64,000 nt of DNA, taken from positions 620,001 through 684,000 of the forward strand of contig NZ_JASVWF010000002.1 in the NCBI RefSeq assembly GCF_030286555.1, read 5' to 3'. The position numbers and the translations under genes are program-made. The DNA is from Actinomycetospora termitidis. Lineage in GTDB: Bacteria > Actinomycetota > Actinomycetes > Mycobacteriales > Pseudonocardiaceae. The notes beneath the pieces are model-generated. The model was not told the origin of the DNA. It made no database searches and saw only the letters and a program-made list of their open reading frames with translations. Every line of letters begins with the position of its first letter. The stretch's first letter is position 1. Positions 27,458 to 36,545 of this stretch are shown here, piece after piece.

Positions 27458-28852
27458 ATGGCGAAGACCTTCGCCGGTGCGCGGCTGCGCCGGCTGCGCG
27501 AGGAGCGGCGGCTCTCGCAGGTCGACCTCGCCCGGGTGCTCGAGCTCTCCCCGAGCTACCTCAACCAGATCGAGCACGACGCACGGCCGTTGACGGTGCC
27601 GGTGCTGCTCCGCCTGACCGAGGCGTTCGGGGTGGATGCCTCGTTCTTCGCCGCCCGCGACACCGCCCGCCTGACCGCCGAGGTCCGCGAGGCCGTCGCC
27701 GACGAAGTGGAGTCCGGCGCGGTCAACGCCTCGGAGATCGCGGAGCTCGCCGAACGCATGCCGGGGATGGCGCGCACCCTGGTCGACCTCCGGGCTCGTC
27801 TGGAGCGGTTGTCGACCGCGGTCGGACGCCGGGACGACGCCGAGATGCGGGCCCCGACCTCGCACGAGCAGGTCCGCGACTTCTTCTCCCGGCACCGCAA
27901 CCACATCCCGGTCCTCGACGAGGCGGCCGAGCGGCTGGCCGGCGAGATCGGGGTCCGGGCCGGGGAGACCCGGGCGGCGCTCGTCCGTCGGCTCATCGAG
28001 CGGCACGGCGTCCGGGTGCAGGTCGGGGAGCAACCGGAGGGGGAGCTGCACCGCTACGACGCCGACCGCGACGTCCTGCGCCTCGCCCCGCACCTGCGTC
28101 CGGGCCAGCGCGCCTTCCGGGTGGCGACCGTGATCGCCCAGCTCGAGTTCCCCGATCTGATCGAGGCCGAGGTGGCCGACGCGGTCGAGCTCGGCGACCC
28201 CGACACCCGCGCCCTGGCACGGATCGGGCTCGCGCACTACGCGGCCGCCGCGCTCGTCCTGCCCTACCGCGCGTTCCACGGCACGGCCGAGCGCTTCGGG
28301 TACGACCTGGAGCGTCTGGCCGACCACTTCGGGGTGGGGTTCGAGACGGTCGCGCACCGGTGCTCGACGCTGCAGCGACCCTCGCTGCCCGGGGTGCCGT
28401 TCGCGTTCGTCCGGGTCGACCGCGCGGGCAACATGTCGAAGCGGCAGTCGGCGACCGCGTTCCACTTCTCCCGCGGCGGCGGGACGTGCCCGCTGTGGAA
28501 CGTCTACGAGGCGTTCGCGTCGCCGGGGCGGGTGTCGACCCAGATCGCGGAGATGCCCGACGGGCAGCGGTACTTCTGGATCGCCCGCACGGTGTCGCGT
28601 CGCCGGGGTGGGTGGCACACGCCGACGAAGACCTTCGCCGTCGGGCTGGGCTGCGAGCTCCGGCACGCCGAACGGCTCGTGTACTCCGCGGGCCTGGACC
28701 TGGCCGACCGGTCCGTGATCACGCCGATCGGCAGTGGCTGCCGGACCTGCGAGCGTCTGGAGTGCCCGCAGCGCGCGTTCCCGCCGCTGGGGAAGTCGTT
28801 GGCCGTCGACCCCGACCGGTCGACGTTCGTGCCGTACCCGGTGCACCCGTGA
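27458..28852 (+). CDS. Short-chain fatty acyl regulator (RamB/PrpR/ScfR family)
   Basis: 464-residue transcription factor. An XRE helix-turn-helix (ARLRRLREERRLSQVDLARV, about residues 7-26, then LSPSYLNQIE) is followed by an ImmA/IrrE-like domain (about 150-270) and a C-terminal DUF2083 region with Cys residues GSGCRTCERLECPQRAF (about 425). Relatives sense short acyl-CoAs and control acetate, glyoxylate-shunt or methylcitrate genes. acs at 4.3 kb is a possible target. ATG 27458; a matching box lies just upstream. Confidence 0.9.
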   Translation: MAKTFAGARLRRLREERRLSQVDLARVLELSPSYLNQIEHDARPLTVPVLLRLTEAFGVDASFFAARDTARLTAEVREAVADEVESGAVNASEIAELAERMPGMARTLVDLRARLERLSTAVGRRDDAEMRAPTSHEQVRDFFSRHRNHIPVLDEAAERLAGEIGVRAGETRAALVRRLIERHGVRVQVGEQPEGELHRYDADRDVLRLAPHLRPGQRAFRVATVIAQLEFPDLIEAEVADAVELGDPDTRALARIGLAHYAAAALVLPYRAFHGTAERFGYDLERLADHFGVGFETVAHRCSTLQRPSLPGVPFAFVRVDRAGNMSKRQSATAFHFSRGGGTCPLWNVYEAFASPGRVSTQIAEMPDGQRYFWIARTVSRRRGGWHTPTKTFAVGLGCELRHAERLVYSAGLDLADRSVITPIGSGCRTCERLECPQRAFPPLGKSLAVDPDRSTFVPYPVHP

Positions 28853-29035: not shown

Positions 29036-29062
29036 GGGAACCACGAGGGGCTGTCGGACGAC
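29036..29062 (+). promoter_or_regulatory. ECF-type promoter GGGAAC-N17-CGAC ahead of the PepSY gene
   Basis: The -35-like GGGAAC is at 29036-29041 and the -10-like CGAC at 29059-29062. The same bipartite motif with identical 17-base spacing precedes the DUF5134 gene and the zinc-finger gene either side of the SigC-like gene. The expected start site near 29070 leaves a leader of about 35 bases containing GAGG. The rest of the gap 28853-29035 holds no convincing gene. Confidence 0.6.
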
Positions 29063-29104
29063 CGGAACGGTCGAACCCCTGCCGCCCGCCCCTGAGGACC
29101 GCCC

Positions 29105-30538
29105 GTGTCAGACACCCTCGACCCGCCACTCGAGAAGGACGCACCGCAGCCGCGGCCGACACCGCCCGTGTCGCCGCGGCGCCTCGGCGCCTGGCGGGGG
29201 CTGCGGCCCCTGGTGATGCGGCTGCACTTCTACGTCGGGATGTTCGTCGGTCCGTTCATCCTCGTGGCGGCCACGACCGGGCTGATCTACACGATCACCC
29301 CGCAGCTCGACCAGCTGCTCTACCGCGACGCGCTCACCGTCCCGGCGTCGAGTGCGCAGGTGGACCTGGGTGCGCAGATCGCCGCGGCCTCGGCGGCCGT
29401 GCCCGACGGGACCGTGACCGAGGTCCGGCCGTCACCGGGCCCGGAGACGACCACCCGGGTGTCCTTCGACGCGCCCGGGGTCGCGGAGGACTACGCCCGC
29501 ACGGCCTTCGTCGACCCGCACACCGGGCAGGTCCGCGCGGTCCTCGACACCTTCGGCGAGTGGCTCCCGACCCGCGCCTGGATCGACACGCTGCACCGAA
29601 ACCTGCACCTCGGCGACGTCGGGCGGGTCTACTCCGAGCTCGCGGCGAGCTGGCTGTGGGTCCTCGCGCTGAGCGGGCTCGCGCTGTGGATCGTCCGCCG
29701 CCGTCGGCAGTCGCGGGTCCGGCGGACCCTGCTGCCGGAGAACGGCCCGGCCGGGCGCGCCCGCATCCGCTCGTGGCACGGGTCGGTCGGCCTGTGGGCG
29801 GCGATCGGCATGCTGGGGCTGTCCGCGACCGGTCTGACCTGGTCGCAGTTCGCGGGCGAGAACGTGTCGAACCTGCGCACCGCGCTGGACTGGACGACGC
29901 CCTCGGTGTCGACCGAGCTGCCGGCGGCGCAGGCCCCGACCACGGACGCGACGCCTTTGGCGATGACGCCGGCCGTCCCGGCCGAGGCGGCGCCCGTCGG
30001 AGCCACCGTGGACCGGGTGCTCGCGTCCGCGCGCGGGGCGGGCATGACGGACCCGATCGCGATCACCCCGCCCGAGGAGGCGGGCCAGGCGTGGACGGTC
30101 AGCCAGGTGAAGCGGTCCTGGCCGCTGAAGCAGGACTCGATGGCGGTGGACCCGACGTCGGGTGCGGTGCTCGAGACCGTCCGGTGGGCGGACTGGCCGA
30201 TCGCCGCGAAGCTCGCCGAGATCGGGATCAGCGCGCACATGAGCATCCTGTTCGGGATCGGCAACCAGCTGCTGCTGCTGGCGCTCGCCCTCGGGATCAT
30301 CGTCGTGGTCGTCTGGGGCTACCGGATGTGGTGGCTGCGCCGCCCGACCCGGCCGGGAGCCTCCGCGCCCGGCGGCACCGAGCGCCCGGGCGTCGGCGCG
30401 ATCGCGACGGTCGGCGCGATCGCGGTCGTACTCGGGGTGTTCTTCCCGGTGCTCGGGGTCTCGCTGCTGCTGTTCCTGATCGTCGACGCGGTCCGGCAGG
30501 AGATTCTGCGGAACCGCGAGCACCGGCTGCCATCCTGA
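29105..30538 (+). CDS. PepSY-associated transmembrane protein
   Basis: 477-residue membrane protein of the PepSY_TM superfamily (PiuB-like). The first helix bears RLHFYVGMFVGPFILVAATT (about 40-59), a periplasmic PepSY region follows, then LHRNLHLGD, further helices with SWHGSVGLWAAIGMLG (about 220-235), another PepSY-like stretch, and two C-terminal helices. Conserved His residues at helix ends are probable haem ligands, so an electron-transfer role in metal reduction or uptake is the usual inference. GTG 29105 has GAGG at 29094-29097. It probably shares a transcript with the Cys-rich protein 52 bases downstream. Confidence 0.85.
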   Translation: MSDTLDPPLEKDAPQPRPTPPVSPRRLGAWRGLRPLVMRLHFYVGMFVGPFILVAATTGLIYTITPQLDQLLYRDALTVPASSAQVDLGAQIAAASAAVPDGTVTEVRPSPGPETTTRVSFDAPGVAEDYARTAFVDPHTGQVRAVLDTFGEWLPTRAWIDTLHRNLHLGDVGRVYSELAASWLWVLALSGLALWIVRRRRQSRVRRTLLPENGPAGRARIRSWHGSVGLWAAIGMLGLSATGLTWSQFAGENVSNLRTALDWTTPSVSTELPAAQAPTTDATPLAMTPAVPAEAAPVGATVDRVLASARGAGMTDPIAITPPEEAGQAWTVSQVKRSWPLKQDSMAVDPTSGAVLETVRWADWPIAAKLAEIGISAHMSILFGIGNQLLLLALALGIIVVVVWGYRMWWLRRPTRPGASAPGGTERPGVGAIATVGAIAVVLGVFFPVLGVSLLLFLIVDAVRQEILRNREHRLPS

Positions 30539-30590
30539 CGCGTCACGAGCGCGACGATCCTGTTCCACCCATCGAGACCCGGGAGTCCCC

Positions 30591-30812
30591 ATGACGATCG
30601 ACACCGACGGCTTGCAGCACATCGCGACCTTCTGCGGGCAGTGCAACTGCGGATGCCCGGAGCTCTACCTCGATCCCTCGGCGGACGAGGAGCGCCGCGT
30701 CGTCATCAGCGACGACTTCGGCCAGCGGATCCAGATGAGCGTGCGCCAGCTCGCCGACCTGGTGGCCGACGCCCGCAACGGCGTCCTGGACGAGGTGCTC
30801 GCCGGCGCGTGA
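30591..30812 (+). CDS. Small Cys-rich protein downstream of PepSY
   Basis: This 73-residue protein has no signal peptide. Its N-terminal third carries FCGQCNCGCPEL, four Cys in a CxxCxCxC arrangement suited to binding a soft metal or an Fe-S cluster. The rest is an acidic helical region (RQLADLVADARNGVLDEVLA). ATG 30591 follows GGGAG (30581-30585). Position after the PepSY gene and behind an ECF-type promoter suggests a metal-carrier, precursor or sensor role. I know no firmly named family. Confidence 0.75.
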   Translation: MTIDTDGLQHIATFCGQCNCGCPELYLDPSADEERRVVISDDFGQRIQMSVRQLADLVADARNGVLDEVLAGA

Positions 30813-30852
30813 CCCGCCCGGGCGGCGGCTCAAGCGGGATCCCGGTCGGCCG

Positions 30853-31557
30853 TCAGAGCATGGCCAGCAGCATGCCGGCCATGCCCAGGCTCATGAGCAG
30901 GTGGCAGCCGGCGTCCAGCCGCGGCCCGGCCGTCCGGGTCGGCGCCGCGGGAGCCGCGACGGCGACGCCCCCGCCGGATCCCGGCGGGGTCGCGTCCGGG
31001 GTCGCCGGCGCGGCCGACCGGCCGGCCCGGACGGCCCGCACCGCCCACCACGCTGCGGCGGCCACCAGGAGCACGACGAACACCCGGGTCAGGGTGGTCG
31101 CCCACCACGGAGTCGGGATCGTGGGCATCGCGCCCATCCCCTCCGTGCCACCACCGTGGTGGTGGCCGCCGCCGGCGTCCTCCCCGGCGCTCATGTCCAT
31201 GCCTATGATCTGCGGCATCGCGGCGACCATGAAGAGCATGGCCGCGTTCATGACGAGGTGGTAACCCTCGCCGACCAGCGAGTGGCCGTTGGTGGGCCGG
31301 ACGGCGCGGGCCAGGAACCACACGGTGAAGAACCCGAAGACGACGATCTGCAGCAGGCCGCTCGGAGACGTCGGTCCGCCGGTCCACCCCCAGGCCATCG
31401 CGACCATCGCGATGCTCATGACCAGGTGCGACAGCTCGACGACGCGGCTCCCGGTGCGCTCCGGTTCGCTACCCAGCTCGGCCAACCGGACCAGCGAGTA
31501 CGCCCCGGTCAGCACGAAGACGACGGTGAAGACCCACGACAACGACGACGAGAACAC
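30853..31557 (-). CDS. DUF5134 membrane protein with His/Met-rich loop
   Basis: 234 residues with six predicted helices; the N-terminal LSWVFTVVFVLTGAYSLVRL and following HLVMSIAMVAMAW are typical of DUF5134. Helices contain many Met and conserved His (HLVMSIAM, YHLVMNAAMLFM, CHLLMSLGMAGM), and the loop between helices 4 and 5 reads MDMSAGEDAGGGHHHGGG, a probable copper or other metal site. GTG 31557 follows GGAGAGGGA. Its own ECF-type promoter overlaps the end of the SigC-like gene. The function is not established in the family. Confidence 0.82.
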   Translation of the reverse strand: MFSSSLSWVFTVVFVLTGAYSLVRLAELGSEPERTGSRVVELSHLVMSIAMVAMAWGWTGGPTSPSGLLQIVVFGFFTVWFLARAVRPTNGHSLVGEGYHLVMNAAMLFMVAAMPQIIGMDMSAGEDAGGGHHHGGGTEGMGAMPTIPTPWWATTLTRVFVVLLVAAAAWWAVRAVRAGRSAAPATPDATPPGSGGGVAVAAPAAPTRTAGPRLDAGCHLLMSLGMAGMLLAML

Positions 31558-31586
31558 GGCGATCCCTCTCCACGACTACCGACCAG

Positions 31587-31613
31587 GTCGCGGCCAGAGA
31601 GCATCGGGTTCCC
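31587..31613 (-). promoter_or_regulatory. ECF-type promoter GGGAAC-N17-CGAC ahead of the DUF5134 gene
   Basis: On the minus strand GGGAAC (31613-31608) is 17 bases from CGAC (31590-31587). A start site near 31579 gives a leader of about 22 bases with a good Shine-Dalgarno. Confidence 0.6.
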
Positions 31614-31617
31614 GGGA

Positions 31618-32184
31618 TCAGCGCGCGTCGGCGGCGCCGGGCGCGGTGCCACCGTGGACGGCCCGGACCAGGTCGGCACGCGCTCGTGCGACACGGGAAC
31701 GGATCGTGCCGACCGGGCAACCGCAGACGTGCGCGGCCTCGGCATACCCGAGGCCGACCACCTGAGTGAGGACGAAGGCCTCCCGCCGGTCGGGGTCGAG
31801 CGCCGTGACCGCTGCCTCGAGCACGATCTGCTCGGCGGCGTCCCCGGGCAGGGGACGCCCCCACGGCTCGTCGGCGTCGGTGATCTCCATGGCGACGACG
31901 GGGCGGCGCGCCCGACGCCGGAGGTGGTCGGCGGCGACGCGCCGGGCGATCGACAGCAGCCACGCCCGCGCGGGCGCCTCCCCGCGGTAGCGCGGCAGCG
32001 CGCCGAAGGCCCGCTCGTAGGTCTCCTGCGCCAGGTCCTGGGCGACCCCGCGGTCGGCGAGGTGGACGAGCAGCCGCCACACCTGGTCCTGCGTGAGCCG
32101 GACGAACTCCCCGGCGGCCGCCCGGTCGCCGCCGCGCGCCCGCTCGGCCGCGCGCGTGACGGCAGCGTCGGCAGCCTCGTCCAT
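31618..32184 (-). CDS. SigC-like ECF RNA polymerase sigma factor
   Basis: 188-residue group-4 sigma factor with only regions 2 and 4. Region 2: VWRLLVHLADRGVAQDLAQE through LSIARRVAADHLRRRARR (about 30-95). Region 4: TQVVGLGYAEAAHVCGCPVG followed by TIRSRVARARADLVRA (about 143-178). The CGCPVGTIRSRVARAR segment and the D-V/R-L-AQ-DL-QET segment closely match the SigC family of Mycobacterium, which has been linked to copper acquisition there. ATG 32184 follows GGGAGGA. It is divergent from a zinc-finger protein gene and flanked by metal-type membrane proteins. Confidence 0.88.
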   Translation of the reverse strand: MDEAADAAVTRAAERARGGDRAAAGEFVRLTQDQVWRLLVHLADRGVAQDLAQETYERAFGALPRYRGEAPARAWLLSIARRVAADHLRRRARRPVVAMEITDADEPWGRPLPGDAAEQIVLEAAVTALDPDRREAFVLTQVVGLGYAEAAHVCGCPVGTIRSRVARARADLVRAVHGGTAPGAADAR

Positions 32185-32365
32185 GGGGTGCGTGTCCTCC
32201 CGGTTCCGCGCGCGACGACCGTGATCGCGTGCGCGCCGTGTCCGGCGAGCCAGAGTAGGCGGTCCTTCGGGGGAGCCGGGAGCCGCGCCCCGGAGGAAGC
32301 ACGGTGCTGACCGGTGCCCCGGACGGGTCATGCGCTCCGGGCTCGCCGAATCGGTGCACCTCGGC

Positions 32366-32392
32366 GGGAACCGGACGGCCTTCCTGAGCGAC
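32366..32392 (+). promoter_or_regulatory. ECF-type promoter GGGAAC-N17-CGAC ahead of the zinc-finger gene
   Basis: GGGAAC (32366-32371) and CGAC (32389-32392) have the same 17-base spacing as two nearby genes. The predicted start site falls at about 32400-32402, on the GTG codon, so the message would be leaderless. Confidence 0.6.
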
Positions 32393-32401
32393 ACTGACGA
32401 C

Positions 32402-32779
32402 GTGGAGTGCGAGCGCTGTCGCGAGGTCACCTCGGCCGACCTCGACGGGGAGGCGACCGCCGGGGAGAGCCGGGCCGCCGAGGCTCACCGGCAGCAGTGT
32501 GCGGCCTGCCGGGAGTGGCTCGAGCGTGCGGCCGCGGTCACCCGACGGGCGCGGACCCGGCCGGCCGCGGCGGGCCCGGACCTGGTGGACGGGGTGCTGG
32601 ACGCCCTGGACCGCGGGTGGCCCGTGCGCGAGGCGCCCGCGGTCGTGCCGGAATCCGCGCGCCGGCTCGTCCTGCTCGTCGGCGGCGAGGCGGTGTCGGA
32701 GTGCGGCTGCGCCGCATCCTGCAGCTGCGGCTGCCAGCAGGGTCGGCCCTGTCGCTGCGGCGACCACCGCGCCGCCTGA
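32402..32779 (+). CDS. zf-HC2-type protein with Cys-rich tail (candidate anti-sigma factor)
   Basis: 125 residues. The N-terminus has a zf-HC2/ZAS arrangement, CERC near residue 3 and HRQQCAACREWL near 28, as in zinc-binding anti-sigma factors. A linker of about 60 residues contains LVLLVGGEAV. The last 25 residues contain CGCAASCSCGCQQGRPCRCG, nine Cys with metal-binding spacing. There is no membrane helix. Divergent from the SigC-like gene, it could be its soluble anti-sigma factor and metal sensor. GTG 32402 was chosen because Cys-rich homology begins there and the promoter ends there; an ATG at 32330 is the alternative. Confidence 0.72.
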   Translation: MECERCREVTSADLDGEATAGESRAAEAHRQQCAACREWLERAAAVTRRARTRPAAAGPDLVDGVLDALDRGWPVREAPAVVPESARRLVLLVGGEAVSECGCAASCSCGCQQGRPCRCGDHRAA

Positions 32780-35105: not shown

Positions 35106-36545
35106 GTGCCCCGCGGTCCGGTCGCCCTGCTCCTCGCCGTCCTGGGGCTGTTCGTGTTCTCCGCGCCGGCGGTAGCCCACGAGTCGGTGCCGTCCGGGGT
35201 CGTCCGGGTCGCGCAGAGCCTGGCCGACCGCGAGCTGACCGTGACCCTGACGCCGCCGCCCACCGGCTCCGGCAGCCTCGCGGTCGCGATCGAGGCGCTG
35301 GGAGACCCGGGGAACCGGCCCGTCGCGGTCCGGGCAGAGCCCGTCGACGGGGCTGCCGCGGCGGCGACACCGGTCGTGCCGGGGCCGGTCGGAGCACCGG
35401 GACGCACCTCGGTCGACCTCGAGCGTGCCGGCACCTGGACGCTGGTGCTCGACGACGCCGGCGCACTCGCCCGCATCCCGCTGCGCTGGGAGGACCCGGG
35501 GACACCGGGCTCGACCTGGGCCACCCGGATCGGAGCCGCCGTCGCCGTCCTGGCCGGGATCGCCGCCACGAGCTTCCTCCGCCGCCGGGTCGCGGTCGCG
35601 GCCGGTCTCGGCGTGCTCGCGGCCGCCGGGGCGGCGGTCGCGGTGACCGCCTTCGCGCTCGGGACGACCCCCGTGTCGGCCGCCTATGTCGCGGGCGGCG
35701 CGCCCCTGTCGGCCGCCCCGGCGGGCGACACCGCACCGGACCCGGGCGGCATGCCCGGCATGACCGGCACGGGAGGGATGGCCGGCATGCACGGCTCGGG
35801 CGGCGGCTCGCCGACGGCGATGCCCGGCGGAGGCGCCGTCTCGATGACGAGCACCCTCACCGGGTCGACGCTGGACCTGCAGCTGCGCGACGCCTCCACC
35901 GGCGTCGCGGTGGACGACCTGATGGTCCACGACGACGCCTTCGTCCACCTCGCGGTCCTGGGTCGGGACGGATCCGAGCAGCACGTCCACCCGGTACGCA
36001 CCGGACCGGGCCGGTGGCAGGTGCGGCTCGCGCCGATGACTCCCGGCCGCCACGGCGTGTTCGCCGAGTTCTCCCGCGACGGCGTCACCCACCAGCAGGT
36101 GCGGTCCGCGGTCGACGTCCCGGGCGTGCCGGCGTCGCCCGGCGCGCTGCCCGCACCCGGGCGGCAGGCCGTGGCCGGTCTGGTCGCCGACGTCGCCGTC
36201 CCCGACGCGGTCGCCGGGCGACCGGCCACGGTCCGCGCCACCTTCAGTCAGGACGGTCGCCCGGTCACCGACCTGCAGGCCTGGCTGGGGATGGCCGGAC
36301 ACCTGTTCGTCCTCGGACCCGGCCGGTCGGGCGCCCCGGACCCCGCCGACGTCACGGCGTCCTTCGCCCACGTCCACGACATGCAGGCCCGCCCGCCCGG
36401 ACGCGGGTACGGACCCGACGTCAGCTTCGCCTACACGTTCCCCGACCCCGGCACCTACCGGCTGTGGCTGCAGGTCCTGCGAGGCGGGTCCGTGGTGACG
36501 GTGCCCGTGGAGGTGTCGGTCGGCGCACCCGCCGGCGCGGTCTGA
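35106..36545 (+). CDS. Secreted, membrane-anchored Met/His-rich protein (putative copper binding)
   Basis: 479 residues. The signal peptide RGPVALLLAVLGLFVFSAPAVA would be cut to leave His-Glu at the mature N-terminus, as in CopC-type copper proteins. A beta-rich domain (about 25-140), two hydrophobic segments (about 140-185 and 198-220), and a Met/Gly linker PGGMPGMTGTGGMAGMHG (about 217) follow. Two beta-sandwich domains come next, one with EQHVHPV and one with LGMAGHLFVLGPG and FAHVHDM. Spaced His and Met suggest Cu(I)/Cu(II) ligands. It starts at GTG 35106. Family name uncertain; the copper role is inferred. Confidence 0.75.
   Translation: MPRGPVALLLAVLGLFVFSAPAVAHESVPSGVVRVAQSLADRELTVTLTPPPTGSGSLAVAIEALGDPGNRPVAVRAEPVDGAAAAATPVVPGPVGAPGRTSVDLERAGTWTLVLDDAGALARIPLRWEDPGTPGSTWATRIGAAVAVLAGIAATSFLRRRVAVAAGLGVLAAAGAAVAVTAFALGTTPVSAAYVAGGAPLSAAPAGDTAPDPGGMPGMTGTGGMAGMHGSGGGSPTAMPGGGAVSMTSTLTGSTLDLQLRDASTGVAVDDLMVHDDAFVHLAVLGRDGSEQHVHPVRTGPGRWQVRLAPMTPGRHGVFAEFSRDGVTHQQVRSAVDVPGVPASPGALPAPGRQAVAGLVADVAVPDAVAGRPATVRATFSQDGRPVTDLQAWLGMAGHLFVLGPGRSGAPDPADVTASFAHVHDMQARPPGRGYGPDVSFAYTFPDPGTYRLWLQVLRGGSVVTVPVEVSVGAPAGAV

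What the first reader, a model, noticed from the sequence alone, without database searches (positions are those of the whole stretch)
29036..32779. A local SigC-type ECF regulon marked by three GGGAAC-N17-CGAC promoters
Seen: the motif GGGAAC, exactly 17 bases, CGAC occurs upstream of the PepSY gene (29036-29062), the DUF5134 gene (31613-31587, minus) and the zinc-finger gene (32366-32392), each correctly oriented and close to its start codon. A SigC-like ECF gene lies among them and has no such motif. Known: ECF promoters have GGAAC-type -35 and short CG-rich -10 elements, and Mycobacterium SigC has been linked to copper acquisition. Inferred: the SigC-like factor drives a small metal-handling module of PepSY protein, Cys-rich carrier, His/Met-rich DUF5134 protein and a Cys-rich regulator.
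Basis: partly seen in the sequence, partly recalled or inferred. Interest (0 to 1): 0.82.

Follow-up and report, generated by a model that had tools for sequence, protein, structure and literature searches.

The report
Copper sigma-factor regulon with soluble anti-sigma
An actinobacterium carries a compact set of probable copper-handling genes that look switched on by a SigC-type sigma factor, and the factor's predicted off-switch here is a small soluble protein with a cysteine-rich tail instead of the usual membrane protein, which suggests how copper shortage might be sensed.

Summary
GGGAAC-N17-CGAC occurs exactly three times in the window, oriented towards PepSY, DUF5134 and the zinc-finger gene. 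Alone it is weak (70 copies in the genome); comparison makes it strong. In 42 sequences spacer 17 occurs 80 times, other spacers 0-26 times. At 41 of 80 sites a start codon lies exactly 36 bases after the first G of the -35, suggesting leaderless mRNAs. The motif matches the core of the published C. glutamicum SigC consensus, and the ECF gene's best solved relative is a M. tuberculosis SigC domain. In relatives the motif also precedes CopC, CopD/CtaG, heavy-metal ATPase, VKOR and DsbA-like genes. The zinc-finger gene encodes a ZAS-type anti-sigma factor, of a family naturally fused to SigC in two loci. Most aligned relatives have membrane helices; this genome has only a 125-aa soluble form with a Cys-rich tail. 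I read this as a SigC copper-starvation module, a new variant of a known kind. There are no expression, binding or metal data; sensing by the tail is inferred.

The parts
29036..29062 (+). SigC-type promoter for the PepSY gene (GGGAAC-N17-CGAC), 69 bases before GTG 29105
   Evidence: the similar gene in G003 (L080, 80% identity) has the motif 36 bases before its start
29105..30538 (+). PepSY_TM membrane protein, 477 aa
   Evidence: Pfam PF03929 E 8.1e-69
30591..30812 (+). 73-aa Cys-rich protein, possibly co-transcribed with PepSY (52-base gap); membership uncertain
   Evidence: no Pfam or NCBIfam match; homologues in 22 of 61 genomes, often not beside sigC; motif upstream in 1 of 22 loci
30853..31557 (-). 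DUF5134 membrane protein, 234 aa, six predicted helices, conserved Met/His
   Evidence: PF17197 102.5 bits; model pLDDT 84.3; 7 of 11 invariant columns in 12 sequences are Met or His
31587..31613 (-). SigC-type promoter for DUF5134, 56 bases before GTG 31557
   Evidence: 36 bases before the DUF5134 start in L078, L080, L094
31618..32184 (-). SigC-like ECF sigma factor, 188 aa
   Evidence: best PDB hit 2o7g (SigC region 2) E 1.9e-21; 2o8x (SigC region 4) ninth, E 1.5e-15; NF007231 (SigC) 149 bits, below its 219 cut-off
32366..32392 (+). SigC-type promoter of the anti-sigma gene; start codon exactly 36 bases after first G (predicted leaderless)
   Evidence: the only promoter-plus-start match in the genome
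32402..32779 (+). soluble ZAS anti-sigma factor (predicted), 125 aa, Cys-rich (metallothionein-like) C-terminal tail
   Evidence: invariant C3 H29 C33 C36; family profile matches RsiW 5wuq E 1.6e-7; only family member found in the genome

Best explanation
This is a SigC-type (ECF36-like) copper-starvation module. The SigC-like factor reads GGGAAC-N17-CGAC promoters and switches on a PepSY_TM protein, a six-helix Met/His-rich DUF5134 protein and its own anti-sigma factor. The zinc-finger protein is that anti-sigma factor: its N-terminal ZAS domain would hold SigC while copper is sufficient, and being itself a SigC target it would close a negative feedback loop. In 20 of the 25 aligned relatives and paralogues this protein has a long hydrophobic (membrane) part. 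Here that part is replaced by a Cys-rich tail, so I infer that copper status is read in the cytosol: Cu(I) on the tail favours the holding form, and loss of copper releases SigC, perhaps with removal of the anti-sigma through its conserved C-terminal -AA. Shown by computation: the motifs, their conservation, homology and gene order, and natural fusion of the two partners in relatives. Inferred: transcription by this SigC, binding to SigC, the metal, the sensing and the proteolysis.
For: Motif matches the core of the C. glutamicum SigC consensus and cg2556 is SigC-dependent there. Spacer 17 found 80 times in 42 sequences. 41 of 80 sites have a start at exactly 36 bases, next best distance 7. 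40 of 75 zinc-finger frames carry exactly this arrangement. The promoter-plus-start pattern has one hit in this genome, the zinc-finger gene; over 61 genomes 88 hits against 23 for the reversed pattern, in the genus 35 against 1 (summed by hand). It occurs in 38 of 46 genomes with a SigC-model hit of 129 bits or more and 5 of 14 without; outside the genus 21 of 29 against 5 of 14 (G004 set aside). SigC and anti-sigma domains in one frame in L179 and L180, Pfam-checked for L180. RsiW homology. Copper or disulfide genes behind the motif in relatives: HMA ATPase, CopC, CopD/CtaG, VKOR, DsbA-like, PepSY. In M. [quoted passage not shown]
Against: No expression, binding or metal data. The bare motif is common (70 in the genome); two of the three sites here lack the fixed 36-base start distance; the flanking bases of the C. 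glutamicum consensus are not matched. The ECF falls below the NCBIfam SigC cut-off. Thirty-one of 75 zinc-finger frames have no motif within 200 bases upstream, in a few cases because they follow sigC in one operon. Most PepSY and DUF5134 genes of relatives lack the motif directly upstream (16 of 25 and 25 of 30), some being inside operons. 5 of 14 genomes without a strong SigC hit still have the promoter-plus-start pattern, and two of its three hits in G043 lead into frames of only 52 and 34 codons. Spacer 16 also occurs 16 times, unexplained. The fusion model does not fix how the two halves dock (pTM 0.45).
Confidence: 0.74

Rival explanations
1. The three matches are real ECF-type promoters but another ECF factor of the genome reads them; the SigC-like gene is only a neighbour.
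For: The sigC gene here has no such promoter itself; the genome has other ECF-like genes (one search lists three weaker SigC-model hits).
Against: The motif matches the SigC consensus core and accompanies SigC-like genes in many genera; a site also lies between sigC and a divergent heavy-metal ATPase gene in a genome of another family (L151).
Confidence: 0.1
2. The zinc-finger protein is not an anti-sigma factor but a SigC-controlled metallothionein or copper chaperone that keeps a vestigial ZAS domain.
For: Cys-rich tail; in four sister loci (L078, L080, L092, L094) a membrane form coexists with the Cys-tailed form, so the latter could have another job. Its own zf-HC2 and anti-sigma model scores are below the cut-offs.
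Against: All ZAS residues are kept; in this genome it is the only family member, and in L087, L090, L193 and L292 the only one found at the locus beside sigC, although G010 and G012 (L087, L090) have a membrane form at another sigC locus.
Confidence: 0.17
3. The module answers another signal (copper excess, haem or thiol stress) rather than copper starvation.
For: Some genes behind the motif in relatives (HMA ATPase, VKOR, DsbA-like) could serve export or envelope redox; Cys-rich soluble anti-sigma factors elsewhere sense thiols (recalled, RsrA).
Against: SigC serves copper acquisition in M. tuberculosis, and the SigC regulon is activated by copper deprivation or disturbed haem a insertion in C. 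glutamicum.
Confidence: 0.2
4. Chance: GC-rich sequence yields such motifs and the reader picked a cluster.
For: 70 exact copies in the genome; about 0.045 clusters of this size expected (hand calculation).
Against: Conservation with fixed spacer and fixed start distance across genera.
Confidence: 0.02

Closest known systems
SigC regulon of Corynebacterium glutamicum
   Same: Promoter core GGGAAC / CGAC of the consensus GGGAACT / CGACTA, and a SigC-dependent 'iron-regulated membrane protein' gene, cg2556; activation under copper deprivation
   Different: Its known targets include cydABCD; the passages I saw mention no anti-sigma gene beside sigC. I did not compare the cg2556 protein itself
SigC of Mycobacterium tuberculosis (ECF36)
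   Same: Best solved homologue; copper acquisition role
   Different: [quoted passage not shown] a review proposes conformational control
RscA, putative anti-SigC of mycobacteria
   Same: Putative anti-SigC gene near sigC in some mycobacteria; SigC fused to Rv0093c, which has an anti-sigma signature. That RscA is Rv0093c is my joining of the two papers; sequences were not compared directly
   Different: The family members fused or linked to SigC that I saw carry membrane helices; the window's form is soluble with a Cys-rich tail
RsiW, anti-SigW of Bacillus
   Same: Family profile match over the ZAS domain, E 1.6e-7
   Different: Different sigma group; no Cys-rich tail (recalled)
CorE of Myxococcus xanthus
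   Same: Cys-rich extension reads copper for an ECF factor
   Different: There the tail is on the sigma factor itself, not on an anti-sigma factor

Membership tests
SigC / ECF36 sigma factors | ECF architecture with regions 2 and 4 | tested here: met
   Sigma70_r2 and r4_2 above cut-off
SigC / ECF36 sigma factors | closest solved homologue is M. tuberculosis SigC | tested here: met
   2o7g (region 2) first; 2o8x (region 4 only) ninth, E 1.5e-15
SigC / ECF36 sigma factors | NCBIfam SigC equivalog cut-off (219 bits) | tested here: not met
   149 bits; only 5 of 61 relatives pass, and 0 of 14 control genomes. I therefore say SigC-like
SigC / ECF36 sigma factors | ECF36 group model of the ECF classification | not testable with these tools
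   I found no such models among the tools; the paper is not held
SigC-type promoter | -35 GGGAAC and -10 CGAC core as in C. glutamicum | tested here: met
   flanking T and TA of that consensus not matched in the window sites
SigC-type promoter | transcription by SigC holoenzyme | not testable with these tools
   needs in vitro transcription
RscA-like anti-sigma factors | ZAS residues (C3, H29, C33, C36) | tested here: met
   invariant in 25 sequences
RscA-like anti-sigma factors | Pfam zf-HC2 or NCBIfam anti-sigma cut-off | tested here: not met
   zf-HC2 16.3 against 22.2 bits, NF052368 16.7 against 50; a membrane-form relative scores 38.5 for zf-HC2
RscA-like anti-sigma factors | gene beside sigC, or fused to it, in relatives | tested here: met
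   window; many relatives; one frame with both in L179, L180
RscA-like anti-sigma factors | C-terminal membrane helices | tested here: not met
   absent in the window protein; hence a variant, not a standard member
RscA-like anti-sigma factors | binds and inhibits SigC | not testable with these tools
   the fusion model does not dock the halves (pTM 0.45)
Metallothionein-like tail | Cys clusters that bind Cu(I) | tested here: inconclusive
   Cys clusters present; no Pfam match for the tail; binding not testable
DUF5134 | Pfam gathering score | tested here: met
   102.5 against 29 bits
Leaderless mRNA | start codon at the transcription start | tested here: inconclusive
   fixed 36-base distance; start sites not mapped

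The most novel reading that the evidence does not exclude
The copper sensor of a SigC system has moved from the membrane to the cytosol: a soluble anti-sigma factor with a metallothionein-like tail holds SigC when loaded with Cu(I) and lets go, or is degraded through its C-terminal -AA, when copper runs out. Sister species carry both forms, this genome only the soluble one, and a genus of a second family (L193, L292) has a similar tail, perhaps by separate origin.
Probability: 0.35. Interest if true: 0.8.

Novelty: new variant of a known kind. Interest (0 to 1): 0.62.

Why it matters
How copper deficiency is sensed in a SigC system is stated as an open question, with no anti-SigC identified (PMC7924339, passage), while others list a putative rscA (PMC6917791, passages). 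This locus and its relatives give a concrete, testable answer in Actinomycetospora, a genus that I know of no disease from (recalled): a specific partner, a specific promoter and a specific Cys-rich tail. They also make DUF5134 a candidate copper membrane protein; a full-text search for 'DUF5134' in the open library found no paper.

Tried and rejected
Genome-wide regulon by exact motif: of the 67 sites outside the window, 42 fell inside long GC3-rich frames by a crude test; of the other 25, 13 had a downstream frame printed and I recognised none as metal-related, 12 were not looked at further (counted by hand). One mismatch on the promoter-plus-start pattern gave 30 places in the genome against 9 for the reversed control; the genes beside them were not examined. 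DUF5134 fold search: no significant match in the PDB (best E 1.1). Fusion model: domains mostly well predicted, docking not; Foldseek found SigC and SigW chains. Motif before the 73-aa Cys-rich gene: 1 of 22 loci, L278, 108 bases upstream; one of the 22, L282, gave no match to anchor the count. Before DUF5134: 5 of 30 loci (4 by script, L232; most of the 30 were too distant for the script's anchor and were checked only in the 400 bases before the match). Before PepSY: 9 of 25 distinct genes (8, L150). Papers not held: Morosov 2018 and the ECF reclassification. Searches for 'anti-SigC', for SigC with PepSY and copper and for copper, anti-sigma and Cys-rich terms listed no paper whose title or start of abstract describes this arrangement; of those listings I read passages of PMC6917791, PMC8999054 and PMC7924339 (of the last also one part of a section), the rest not.
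Full report
OBSERVATION. The pattern GGGAAC-N17-CGAC occurs three times in the window, at the stated places and strands, against a shuffle mean of 0.45. The genome holds 70 exact matches, so the bare motif is not specific. By hand from that density, about 0.045 clusters of three in 3.4 kb would be expected genome-wide. Of the 67 other sites, 42 lie in long GC3-rich frames by a crude test. The value of the observation rests on comparison.

HOST AND GENES. The host is an Actinomycetospora: three genomes of its own genus have contigs of the same lengths as the named records L061-L063. Gene order is PepSY_TM (29105-30538 +), 73-aa Cys-rich protein (30591-30812 +), DUF5134 (30853-31557 -), ECF factor (31618-32184 -), zinc-finger protein (32402-32779 +). 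The zinc-finger gene most likely starts at GTG 32402, not at the ATG 32330 of the longest frame, because relatives start at the same place and the promoter would otherwise lie inside the gene.

THE SIGMA FACTOR. Its best PDB relative is the region-2 domain of M. tuberculosis SigC (2o7g, E 1.9e-21); the short region-4 domain (2o8x) is ninth with E 1.5e-15, behind longer chains of other ECF factors. The NCBIfam SigC model scores 149 bits, below its cut-off of 219, but no other place in the genome exceeds 71.6 bits. I call it SigC-like. It has no motif of its own: best stretch 7 of 10 bases. In a number of relatives the motif does precede sigC (for example L079, L081, L082, L086, L088), so self-activation varies.

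THE MOTIF IN RELATIVES. In 42 sequences (12 kb of the window, L064 and L078-L117; 549,347 bases) spacer 17 occurs 80 times, spacer 14 26 times, spacer 16 16 times, the rest 0-8; the reversed pattern peaks at 6. 23 of the 26 spacer-14 matches share their -35 with a spacer-17 site (CGACGAC); none of the spacer-16 matches do, and they are unexplained. Of the 80 spacer-17 sites, 41 have a start codon exactly 36 bases after the first G; the next commonest distance within 27-79 bases has 7. That is about where transcription should begin, so I predict leaderless mRNAs. In 70 sequences searched, 75 zinc-finger frames were found: 40 have exactly this arrangement, 4 have the motif elsewhere, 31 have none within 200 bases. 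Most sequences were collected by zinc-finger similarity; L152-L154, L156 and L161 were fetched for SigC, motif or weak zinc-finger hits, and two of the 75 frames are pieces at one place in L295. Other gene kinds carry the motif less regularly: PepSY 9 of 25, DUF5134 5 of 30, the 73-aa gene 1 of 22.

GENOME TALLY. The promoter-plus-start pattern has one hit in this genome, the zinc-finger gene; over 61 genomes it has 88 hits against 23 for the reversed pattern, in the 18 genomes of the genus 35 against 1 (summed by hand). It occurs in 43 of 61 genomes: 38 of 46 with a SigC-model hit of 129 bits or more, 5 of 14 without; G004, whose best SigC-model hits are weak and whose sigC homologue runs into a contig end (L253), is set aside. 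Seventeen of the 46 are from the host's genus, so they are not independent; outside it the figures are 21 of 29 and 5 of 14. Some hits are background: two of the three in G043 lead into frames of 52 and 34 codons.

THE SAME MOTIF IS KNOWN. The published C. glutamicum SigC consensus is -35 GGGAACT and -10 CGACTA, and the promoter of cg2556, an 'iron-regulated membrane protein', depends on SigC in vitro and in vivo (PMC5483222, passages). The window sites match the core GGGAAC and CGAC, not the flanking T and TA. A link of that SigC to copper deprivation is stated in PMC7337898 (passages). In M. [quoted passage not shown]

WHAT ELSE THE MOTIF PRECEDES. Beside sites in relatives and checked by Pfam: VKOR and DsbA-like (L079), Caa3_CtaG/CopD (L104), MauE (L153), a periplasmic binding protein (L156), an HMA/E1-E2 ATPase (L152), PepSY_TM (L150) and CopC (L285; the same kind in L283 and L284 by eye). 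By eye only: an HMA ATPase divergent from sigC in G043, another family (L151), and PCuAC-like and YcnI-like proteins. DUF5134 carries the motif in the window, L078, L080, L090, L094 and in G043 (L232). This looks like copper uptake and oxidase assembly.

THE ANTI-SIGMA FACTOR. The zinc-finger protein belongs to a family with invariant C3, H29, C33 and C36 (25 sequences); the family profile matches RsiW, the anti-SigW factor (E 1.6e-7), although the window protein alone is below the Pfam and NCBIfam cut-offs. Twenty of the 25 have a long hydrophobic part; the model of L180 shows four long helices there. In L179 and L180 the same domain is in one frame with SigC (Pfam for L180); the L180 sigma part is 85-97% identical to M. 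tuberculosis SigC chains. Prior statements exist: SigC fused to Rv0093c in the M. avium complex (PMC7563442, passage), a putative rscA in mycobacteria (PMC6917791, passages), ECF36 members fused to anti-sigma factors (PMC8999054, passages). Against these, PMC7924339 says no anti-SigC has been identified. So the family is not new. New here, as far as my searches went, are its frequent SigC-type, start-coupled promoter and the soluble Cys-tailed form.

THE SOLUBLE FORM. The window protein has no membrane part and ends in a Cys-rich tail. Four sister loci (L078, L080, L092, L094) carry both forms; L087 and L090 carry the tailed form beside a second sigC, in genomes with a membrane form elsewhere. 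In this genome no other family member was found (150 of 193 first-look candidates scored; completeness 97.7%). In the sigma-factor tree the window groups with the species that have both forms, so loss of the membrane form is the simplest reading. L193 and L292, one genus of another family, have a similar tail beside sigC, and L293 and L294 are short without it, so the change may have happened more than once. Many members end in A/V/T/S-A: 45 of 50 frames (one gene counted twice, L087 and L158), 12 of 20 in the second set, against 36 of 294 long frames of the same loci, these included. Such ends resemble Clp degrons (recalled), an unproved step.

MECHANISM. Shown: motifs, conservation, homology, fusion. 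Inferred: the SigC-like factor transcribes the three genes; the zinc-finger protein holds it; copper decides. The PepSY protein may reduce metal at the membrane (recalled for PepSY_TM proteins) and DUF5134 may pass Cu(I): 7 of its 11 invariant residues are Met or His, it has six predicted helices, and no known fold matches.

LIMITS. Everything is sequence comparison. Two of the three local sites do not keep the 36-base start distance. The metal is taken from relatives. The 73-aa Cys-rich protein is a weak member. After re-checking I mended several counts; none of them required a change of the odds.

Noticed in passing
L078 7829-/7830+, L080 7426-/7427+, L094 8360-/8361+: Two SigC-type promoters stand back to back with their -35 boxes touching, driving the Cys-tailed anti-sigma gene and DUF5134 in opposite directions, both with the 36-base start distance.
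   Followed up: partly
L078 7141+, L094 7613+: A SigC-type site between sigC and DUF5134 points antisense into DUF5134 in two species; purpose unknown.
   Followed up: no
upstream of the 73-aa Cys-rich gene in L256, L258, L259, L270, L273, L277: A repeated TGAGAA element, seen by eye, precedes the Cys-rich gene where it lies beside sigC, suggesting a different regulator.
   Followed up: no
C-termini of the anti-sigma family (for example window 32768-32779): Strong preference for a terminal small residue plus Ala, kept between soluble and membrane forms.
   Followed up: partly
window 35106-36542 (+): Protein with His/Met-rich stretches and a weak YtkA-like match (E 0.0074, below cut-off), possibly metal-related; a similar stretch lies near sigC in L112.
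   Followed up: no
window 27458-28852 (+): RamB-like regulator (NCBIfam 630.5 bits, cut-off 700) upstream of the module; an 89% identical gene also lies beside the sigC locus in L063/L078.
   Followed up: no
L117: Anti-sigma domain in one 810-aa frame whose printed start continues into a CopC-like sequence, read by eye.
   Followed up: no
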